A DNA stretch of 33,186 nucleotides. Source: an uncultured Bacilli bacterium (GTDB taxonomy: Bacteria > Bacillota_I > Bacilli_A > RF39 > UBA660). Each line of letters opens with the position of its first letter. Positions within the stretch are counted from its first letter, which is position 1. Below, one piece after another: positions 30,466 to 32,266 of the stretch. Location of the stretch: NCBI GenBank assembly GCA_947629075.1, contig CANRCI010000003.1, positions 1 through 33,186 of the forward strand. The letters run 5' to 3'. A program made the translations under genes and the position numbers. The notes below the pieces were generated by a model. That model was given only the letters and a program-made list of their open reading frames with translations, was not told where the DNA came from and made no database searches.

Positions 30466-30747
30466 CTACATTTCTGGTAGATATATCTCTTCTAAAAGCG
30501 ATAAATTAGAACTGATCATATCGATTAAATTTTCGCCATATCTTTCTTTTAAACCATTATATCGCTCGACAAAATTAGGATATTCAACAGAAAACAGTAC
30601 TAGACAATTCTCTATAAGTTCTTCGATAAAAGAACAGTTTTCATCCAATAAGAAAGCAATTATTTTTTTTATATTTTCAACATCTAGGCTAGATATAAAA
30701 CTTTCTTCGTATTTACTTAATAGTTCTTCGACTATCTGCTCGGCCAT
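30466..30747 (-). CDS. Small helical protein of unknown function
   Basis: Start MAEQIVEELLSKYEESF at 30747 with AAAAAAGGAAATGATAAAA RBS; start lies inside the 3' end of the upstream repeat gene. Confidence 0.7.
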   Translation of the reverse strand: MAEQIVEELLSKYEESFISSLDVENIKKIIAFLLDENCSFIEELIENCLVLFSVEYPNFVERYNGLKERYGENLIDMISSNLSLLEEIYLPEM

Positions 30748-31834
30748 TTTTATCATTTCCTTTTTTATATTTTACCAATTTTTTTAAATCAATACCGTAT
30801 TGTGCTTTCAATCCCTCATTTGAAGTATTGATTATCGGATTTATTTTCCTATCTTTAAAGAAAGGAATTTGATTATCATCCATATATTCAAATAAAGCTC
30901 TTCTCTCATTTGCGTTGAACTGGATAGCAGTTGGGGTTACAAAGTTATCTATACCATACTCTTTGTAGAGTTCAAAAATATTAACTATCGTTTCTAGTTT
31001 TACTCTAAAAATGATTGAGGTAAACAGATGACTGTAACCATCTGCCCAGTATGATAGATTTATTTTCTTACGAATACTTTCAGGTTTGTCTTTCCAAATA
31101 CCTGGTTTAAGAAGGTGCTGGTATTGTTTGTTTTTCCACTCGGGCATCGATAAAATGTTAAATACTTTTTCTTTACTATTACCCCAGATACTACCAGTAA
31201 GTAGATTTTTAAACACCGGATCGTCCCAAACTGATTGTGCTTTTAATATTTCATCCTTTTCCCAACTTTTCTTCATATGCAGTATTTCTACTACATCGCG
31301 GTAGTTACTTTTCCAAATATTTTTTGTCAATAACGGTCTAAATTTAGGATCTTGCCATTCTGGTAGGGATAAAATTTTTTTTACTTCTTCATAACTACAA
31401 CGCCAGATATTAGAACTCAATACCTCTTCAAAATCAGAATCTTCCCATTCTTTCATATGAAGGATTCCATTGACGTCTTCATAATTACTATTCCAAATAT
31501 TGGGTGTCAAAAGCTTTTTAAAACGAAACTCATCCCACTCCTTCATATCCACAATTTTAGAAATATTTTCATAATTGCTATTCCAGATAGTCGGAGTTAA
31601 TAAATTTTTAAACTTTGCATCTTTTAACTTTGCAATCGATAAAACATTTTTTATCTCTTCGTAACTACTGTTCCATATATTACTACTAAGTAAAGCGTTA
31701 AAAGGTTCCTCTTGCAATTCGGACATTGCCATTATTTTAGTTATTTCATCGATACTTCTTTCAAAAAAACGATCATTGATTAAATCGGTTCGGCCATTCA
31801 AAGCTCTAATTTTTTCATCTCTCAACTGATCCAT
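30713..31834 (-). CDS. Tandem 30-aa Trp-rich helical-repeat protein of unknown function
   Basis: 373 aa; consensus xDxxFxxLLTpxIWnSnYEdVxxILxMxEW repeated in exact 30-residue register. Confidence 0.85.
   Translation of the reverse strand: MDQLRDEKIRALNGRTDLINDRFFERSIDEITKIMAMSELQEEPFNALLSSNIWNSSYEEIKNVLSIAKLKDAKFKNLLTPTIWNSNYENISKIVDMKEWDEFRFKKLLTPNIWNSNYEDVNGILHMKEWEDSDFEEVLSSNIWRCSYEEVKKILSLPEWQDPKFRPLLTKNIWKSNYRDVVEILHMKKSWEKDEILKAQSVWDDPVFKNLLTGSIWGNSKEKVFNILSMPEWKNKQYQHLLKPGIWKDKPESIRKKINLSYWADGYSHLFTSIIFRVKLETIVNIFELYKEYGIDNFVTPTAIQFNANERRALFEYMDDNQIPFFKDRKINPIINTSNEGLKAQYGIDLKKLVKYKKGNDKNGRADSRRTIK
30956..31804 (-). repeat. Nine diverged 90-bp (30-codon) coding repeats, one 13-codon insertion after the fifth core unit
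   Basis: Units at residues 11-40, 41-70, 71-100, 101-130, 131-160, 161-191 (+192-203 insert), 204-233, 234-263, 264-293 of the 373-aa protein. Confidence 0.8.
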
Positions 31835-31895
31835 ACTATCACCTACACTAAAATTTTACTTTGTTTAATTAGTGATGTCAATTGTAAAAAAAATA

Positions 31896-31918
31896 AAAAG
31901 AGATAAACATTATCTCAA
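31896..31918 (-). terminator. Terminator after XRE regulator gene
   Basis: TTGAGATAATGTTTATCTCTTTTTATTTTTTTT on minus strand. Confidence 0.75.
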
Positions 31919-32266
31919 TTTTTTCTCTAATAATTCTATTCCTCTTTTAGGGTTAACCATTATCATTTCGTATAAGTGATGATGGTTTCTTATTTCTTTA
32001 ATAAATTCTATTTCGGAATTGGACATTTTGATAGTATAACTATCATGATTATCACTGATAACATATTTATCATTACCTAGGAAATAATCGATGTTGACGT
32101 TGAAGATATTTGATAAATCTAACAAGGTTTCAAGCGACGGAATTCTTGTCCCCTTTTCATAGCAACAAACACTGACCTTCGTTACATTTAACAAATTACC
32201 TAGTTGTTGCTGCGTCATATTTTGATTTTTTCTCAATTCTTTTATACGTTTACCAAGTAAAATCAT
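31910..32266 (-). CDS. XRE-family helix-turn-helix transcriptional regulator
   Basis: 118 aa; GKRIKELRKNQNMTQQQLGNLLNVTKVSVCCYEKGTRIPSLETLLDLSNIFNVNIDYFLG. Confidence 0.93.
   Translation of the reverse strand: MILLGKRIKELRKNQNMTQQQLGNLLNVTKVSVCCYEKGTRIPSLETLLDLSNIFNVNIDYFLGNDKYVISDNHDSYTIKMSNSEIEFIKEIRNHHHLYEMIMVNPKRGIELLEKKLR

What the first reader, a model, noticed from the sequence alone, without database searches (positions are those of the whole stretch)
30956..31804. Exact-register 30-aa Trp-rich tandem repeat protein, candidate undescribed helical solenoid
Nine units align without gaps at 30 residues (e.g. KDAKFKNLLTPTIWNSNYENISKIVDMKEW / DEFRFKKLLTPNIWNSNYEDVNGILHMKEW / DDPVFKNLLTGSIWGNSKEKVFNILSMPEW), with one 13-residue insertion. 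Each unit looks like two short helices separated by a variable 2-3 residue turn (NSS, NSN, RCS, KSN, GNS, KDK), with conserved F, LL, IW, Y/E, IL and EW packing positions. The architecture is reminiscent of two-helix solenoids such as mTERF or TALE-like repeats, where the inter-helix turn can contact nucleic acid, but I do not recognise the consensus. Binding function is inference only.
Basis: partly seen in the sequence, partly recalled or inferred. Interest (0 to 1): 0.72.

Follow-up and report, generated by a model that had tools for sequence, protein, structure and literature searches.

The report
Bacterial mTERF-like tandem repeat array protein
This gene encodes a spring-shaped repeat protein, probably a sequence-reading DNA- or RNA-binding protein akin to mitochondrial mTERF and plant-pathogen TAL effectors; its relatives swap repeat arrays while keeping the same end cap and small partner protein.

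Summary
The 373-aa ORF (30713-31834, -) has seven canonical 30-aa IW units plus two degenerate ones in exact register, with one 13-aa insertion. AlphaFold2 gives a confident solenoid (pLDDT 90) with 3-4 short helices per unit, not two. Its best PDB fold matches are TAL effectors, then MTERF4, all below significance. No library names the repeat by sequence. Relatives, confined to one bacterial family, tie it to a bacterial mTERF superfamily: one 26-aa array protein has a PF02536 (mTERF) N-terminus above cut-off. A published kind, pTERF (Hu et al. 2024, PMC11417379), is tandem, mostly Bacillota, and DNA-binding; membership could not be tested by sequence. Apparently undescribed: (1) in relatives two residues flanking IW (xIWz, positions 12/15) are hypervariable amid conserved sequence, also at equivalent places in 26- and 29-aa arrays, like a recognition code; (2) a conserved acidic ~90-aa partner gene overlaps the array gene (here 30466-30756); (3) the same cap and partner follow SF2 helicases with HA-domain arrays. 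Target and biological role are unknown.

The parts
30713..31834 (-). array gene, 373 aa, mTERF-like tandem repeat protein
   Evidence: ORF; period test; AF2 model pLDDT 90.2
31715..31804 (-). degenerate first unit (residues 11-40)
   Evidence: register with the canonical units; helices 21-25 and 28-35 in the model
31265..31714 (-). canonical units 1-5 (residues 41-190), 12/15 pairs NN TN NN NR NK
31226..31264 (-). 13-aa insertion (residues 191-203), low confidence in the model
   Evidence: spacing 43; pLDDT 58 in residues 191-200
31046..31225 (-). canonical units 6-7 (residues 204-263), 12/15 pairs SG GK
30956..31045 (-). degenerate last unit (residues 264-293), start of the conserved C-terminal region
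   Evidence: alignment A6
30761..30955 (-). conserved C-terminal cap (residues 294-358, ...KINPIINTSNEGLKAQYGIDLKKL...)
   Evidence: alignment A6; profile hits
30466..30756 (-). partner gene, 96 aa, acidic (pI 4.1), overlaps the array gene by 44 nt (35 nt if the second ATG is the start); mTERF-like fold suggested
31853..31881 (-). promoter-like site TTGACA-17-TAAAAT, 19 nt before the array start codon (best of its region, consensus match only)

Best explanation
A bacterial mTERF-superfamily solenoid that reads a nucleic-acid sequence, most likely double-stranded DNA, with unit positions 12 and 15 (xIWz, one face of the first short helix) as the reading residues and the invariant I-W as core. 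Its conserved C-terminal cap recruits or is stabilised by the acidic ~90-aa partner made from the overlapping gene, and the complex acts as a regulator or roadblock at its site. Shown: the repeat, a confident solenoid model, the hypervariable pair in relatives, rapid array turnover between orthologues, the conserved cap and the linked conserved partner. Inferred: binding, DNA rather than RNA, the unit-to-base code, cap-partner contact and the cellular role.
For: AF2 pLDDT 90.2; best PDB folds are TAL effectors, then MTERF4, no such match among viral models. In 21 arrays of relatives positions 12 and 15 differ in 67% and 79% of within-protein unit pairs, and in 56% and 71% of near-identical pairs against mean 9.8% and maximum 29% elsewhere; equivalent hot spots in 26- and 29-aa arrays. 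Orthologues L097/L098: flanks 95% and partner 91% identical, but 12 versus 7 units with different pairs. PF02536 above cut-off in the N-terminus of a 26-aa array protein and a 122-bit mTERF in the same genome; cap profile also matches that mTERF. Partner next to 37 of 49 cap-bearing ORFs, fold nearest MTERF4/3/1. Published pTERF proteins bind specific DNA (PMC11417379).
Against: Fold matches do not reach E 0.001. In the window's own array every position has diverged and the 12/15 pair does not stand out. Many arrays are net negative, up to -1.9 per unit. A shared-code search for autoregulatory sites was null. Positions 12 and 15 do not covary (p 0.20). The pTERF sequences could not be compared.
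Confidence: 0.55

Rival explanations
1. The array reads single-stranded RNA (or ssDNA) in the way PPR or PUF proteins do, controlling stability or translation of transcripts, with the 12/15 pair as an RNA code.
For: The residue sets resemble RNA-repeat codes (position 12 is N/T/S/G in 130 of 137 units; comparison with PPR position 5 and PUF positions 12/16 is from memory). Best Pfam lead, though far below cut-off, is PPR_3. Eukaryotic mTERFs act on RNA as well as DNA (established knowledge; PMC4005652 is one example).
Against: The nearest solved folds are dsDNA readers; pTERF1 and pTERF2 bind dsDNA with nM affinity (PMC11417379), though RNA was not reported as tested in the section read.
Confidence: 0.25
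2. The solenoid binds a protein ligand (for example a phage or host protein) and the variable face is shaped by an arms race, with no nucleic acid involved.
For: Solenoids commonly bind proteins; arrays are often net negative; fast turnover.
Against: Hot spots are two small polar positions with restricted residues rather than a broad variable surface; the mTERF relation and SF2 helicases sharing the cap point to nucleic acids; no defence-family match of substance.
Confidence: 0.13
3. A decaying or neutral repeat gene whose unit changes reflect slippage and drift.
For: The window's units are well diverged and the pair is not a hot spot there; distribution is sporadic.
Against: Open frame with conserved cap and conserved linked partner across many genera. 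In relatives amino-acid change at 12 and 15 (67%, 79%) far exceeds synonymous change at other codons while W14 is invariant in 137 of 137 units.
Confidence: 0.07

Closest known systems
pTERF, prokaryotic mTERF-like tandem repeat proteins (Hu et al. 2024, PMC11417379)
   Same: Tandem helical units, about three helices each, few to a dozen units, from uncultured bacteria, resemblance to mTERF
mTERF family (PF02536; MTERF1/3/4)
   Same: Partner model and array model match MTERF structures weakly; relatives of the same module have PF02536 above cut-off; shared C-terminal cap
   Different: Window protein itself has no PF02536 match; its units are regular and tandem, those of mTERF degenerate
TAL effectors and TALE-likes (dHax3, BurrH/BATs, MOrTL, STAR)
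   Same: Tandem units with a conserved body and a hypervariable residue pair near the first helix; best Foldseek matches
   Different: 30 rather than 33-35 aa, no sequence similarity detected, pair spaced i/i+3 around I-W rather than adjacent, fold match not significant
PPR and PUF RNA-binding repeats
   Same: One unit per base logic with two reading positions, as a working analogy
   Different: No family match above cut-off; different unit length and helix layout
SF2 helicases with HA domains (PF03457)
   Same: In this bacterial family they carry the same C-terminal cap and are followed by the same partner gene
   Different: Their array is HA domains (about 75 aa) behind a ResIII/DEAD ATPase, not mTERF-like units

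Membership tests
pTERF (Hu et al. 2024) | sequence similarity to pTERF1/pTERF2 repeats | not testable with these tools
   Sequences are only in figures and supplements, which could not be read
pTERF (Hu et al. 2024) | tandem units of about three helices, confident model | tested here: met
   AF2 pLDDT 90.2, three to four short helices per unit
pTERF (Hu et al. 2024) | 3-11 units, uncultured bacterial genome | tested here: met
   seven canonical plus two degenerate units; the window's contig is one of 100 in a fragmented, about 93% complete genome, which fits a metagenome assembly; taxon not named
pTERF (Hu et al. 2024) | sequence-specific DNA binding | not testable with these tools
   needs SELEX/EMSA
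mTERF (PF02536) | PF02536 above the curated cut-off in the protein itself | tested here: not met
   no match in the window protein or its genome; met in a 26-aa array relative, 29.7 against 23.1 bits
mTERF (PF02536) | mTERF-like fold | tested here: inconclusive
   MTERF4 rank 18, E 1.2; partner best matches MTERF4/3/1, E 1.5-6.5
TALE / TALE-like | significant similarity to TALE repeats in sequence or fold | tested here: inconclusive
   no sequence hit in the PDB search; fold match E 0.075, TM 0.46
TALE / TALE-like | adjacent variable di-residue at positions 12-13 of a 33-35 aa unit | tested here: not met
   variable residues are 12 and 15 of a 30-aa unit
PPR | 35-aa two-helix motif, Pfam PPR above cut-off | tested here: not met
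   PPR_3 12.5 bits against a cut-off of 25, E 0.16

The most novel reading that the evidence does not exclude
A modular nucleic-acid targeting system confined to one family of small-genome, low-GC bacteria. A common C-terminal cap and its acidic partner are kept while the recognition array in front is exchanged among 26-, 28-, 29- and 30-aa mTERF-like units with a two-residue x..z code, or replaced by an SF2 helicase with an HA-domain array. It would be a naturally programmable reader with a dedicated partner, distinct from TALE, PPR, PUF and organellar mTERF.
Probability: 0.4. Interest if true: 0.85.

Novelty: new variant of a known kind. Interest (0 to 1): 0.62.

Why it matters
If the 12/15 pair is a base code, this is another compact programmable reader (30 aa per unit) built on an mTERF-like fold, useful for engineering and for understanding how mTERF specificity arises. 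The conserved partner, and the cap shared with helicases, give a handle on what bacterial mTERF-like proteins do. Bacterial mTERFs above the Pfam cut-off also bear on the origin of organellar mTERFs.

Tried and rejected
Pfam, NCBIfam, PHROGs, PADLOC and PDB sequence searches of the window protein gave only sub-threshold or implausible hits. Viral-contig scans returned no answer. Phages and plasmids: no match. Covariation of positions 12 and 15 within arrays: none (MI p 0.20), so they may act independently. Autoregulation test with a shared code fitted to upstream regions: null, 26 of 60 permutations as good. pTERF1 motif ACTNNNAGTC in the window: 3 matches against 2.9 expected. Inverted repeats upstream of the array gene: not unusual. 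L087 (U32-peptidase-like protein of the own genome) rejected as a chance cap hit. Partner compared with cap by profile: weak (prob 36), so common origin is not claimed. Many Pfam hits to the 26/29-aa arrays are artefacts of many near-identical repeats: no single stretch passes on its own for most.

Full report
Observation. The minus-strand ORF 30713-31834 encodes 373 aa. Identity at lag 30 is 22% against at most 13% at any lag in 2000 shuffles. The 13-aa insertion lies between canonical units 5 and 6.

Structure. AlphaFold2 on an alignment of 15 relatives gives pLDDT 90.2 and pTM 0.78. Units fold into short helices SxxIW / YEDVxxIL / xEWx / xxFxxL, so the unit is not a two-helix hairpin. In the PDB the first 16 matches are all TAL effectors (best E 0.075, prob 0.99, TM 0.46), and MTERF4 is rank 18. 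None passes E 0.001, so this is a resemblance, not proof. The same query against viral models found nothing with a comparable TM-score.

Relatives and distribution. A plain protein search finds relatives in 3 of 60 related genomes (this tally counts the own genome). A unit profile finds 21 of 293 in the family, about half of them strong. The C-terminal cap profile finds 67 of 385 in the order, all in the window's own family (the weakest are chance, e.g. L087). It finds only the own genome among 391 sampled at phylum level at E 1e-6. A partner profile at class level found 20 of 397, all in the family but one weak hit. Phage and plasmid collections had no match. The own genome has one copy of the module.

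The partner gene. A second ORF, 30466-30756, overlaps the array gene by 44 nt (35 nt if the second ATG is used). Of 49 cap-bearing ORFs examined, 37 have a homologue of it adjacent, almost always immediately downstream with a short overlap or gap (-44 to +18 nt); in one genus it lies upstream. Of the 12 without, four are cut by contig ends, one (L054) has its partner upstream on another contig, six are extra copies in genomes with several arrays, and one is the plain mTERF L132. The partner is strongly acidic (pI 4.1-4.6 in ten of ten), while the array C-terminus is neutral to basic. Its model (pLDDT 84.9) matches best MTERF4, MTERF3 and MTERF1, weakly. That the partner docks on the cap is inference from linkage and charge.

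A hypervariable pair. In relatives with near-identical units the differences concentrate at positions 12 and 15, on either side of the I-W pair. They differ in 67% and 79% of 446 within-protein unit pairs. In 126 near-identical pairs they differ in 56% and 71%, against mean 9.8% and maximum 29% at other positions. Position 15 is the most variable, alone or tied, in 13 of 19 arrays. Position 12 is N, T, S or G in 130 of 137 units; position 15 is mostly N, Q, H, K, S, T or R; W14 is invariant. Arrays with 26-aa and 29-aa units have hot spots at the equivalent places (xVFz, xTLAz); the 28-aa array varies there too, but also elsewhere. In the window's own array all positions have diverged and the pair does not stand out, so the code reading comes from relatives.

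Turnover. Between two orthologous loci (L097, L098) the flanking genes are 95% identical, the partner 91%, and the ends of the array protein 86% and 91%, yet the arrays have 12 and 7 units with different pairs. Several assemblies break inside these arrays (L048/L049, L054/L055, L056, L065), as expected of near-identical repeats.

mTERF connection and swapped arrays. The cap and partner also go with 26-, 28- and 29-aa arrays, and with SF2 helicases carrying HA domains (PF03457, E 1e-79 to 1e-117). The cap match in helicases is E 1e-7 to 1e-9 (hhalign prob 89). The helicase-type partner matches the array-type partner (hhalign prob 98.7). The N-terminus of a 26-aa array protein matches PF02536 above cut-off (29.7 against 23.1 bits), and another protein of that genome is a full mTERF of 122 bits. 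PF02536 is above cut-off in 15 of 195 family genomes and in 0 of 14 controls. The cap profile also matches that bacterial mTERF's C-terminus (hhalign prob 79; HMM E 2e-6). HA units too have variable spots, not followed up.

Comparison with the literature. Hu et al. 2024 (PMC11417379) describe pTERF: tandem mTERF-like proteins from metagenome-assembled, mostly Bacillota, genomes with 3-11 units. pTERF1 binds ACTNNNAGTC with Kd 1.87 nM and pTERF2 binds another motif. What could be tested agrees with the window protein being of that kind, but the pTERF sequences could not be read, so membership is open. No paper found mentions the partner gene, the pair or the helicase variants; absence from this library is not proof. 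An earlier screen for TALE-like repeats (PMC5472282) does not mention Firmicutes or uncultured sources in its text.

Judgement. The finding is real and better than ordinary. The kind (bacterial mTERF-like, probably DNA-binding) was published in 2024. The two-gene module, the x..z hot spots shared across unit lengths, and the cap and partner reused on helicases are, as far as could be checked, new. DNA versus RNA, the code and the biological role are unproven.

Noticed in passing
L090 5804-9073 (-), L091 5805-8897 (-), L092 1974-5030 (+): About 1000-aa SF2 helicases with tandem HA domains (PF03457) carry the same C-terminal cap and are followed by the same partner gene; their HA units have their own variable spots (P-x-x-F and LGxW..xxQRxx).
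   Followed up: partly
L132 3676-4752 (-): A bona fide bacterial mTERF protein (PF02536, 122 bits); PF02536 is above cut-off in 15 of 195 genomes of this family.
   Followed up: partly
L115, L116, L118, L119, L122, L123, L125: A weakly similar ~95-aa partner-like protein follows a different, apparently common gene pair (partly coiled-coil protein ending in ...GLDPKKVPLIAY plus a second protein), suggesting a wider partner family.
   Followed up: no
L088 1-1785, L089 3091-5562: Arrays of 26-aa units (about 20 and more near-identical copies) with the same cap and partner.
   Followed up: partly
L058 5323-6162 (-): A PD-(D/E)XK nuclease family transposase (PF12784) sits next to the module; L062 has a serine-recombinase-like gene nearby. 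Possible link to mobility or array recombination.
   Followed up: no
window 31910-32266 (-): A Cro/C1-type HTH regulator (PF01381) lies 75 nt upstream of the array gene, preceded by a small SSB gene; the relatives examined do not share this context.
   Followed up: no
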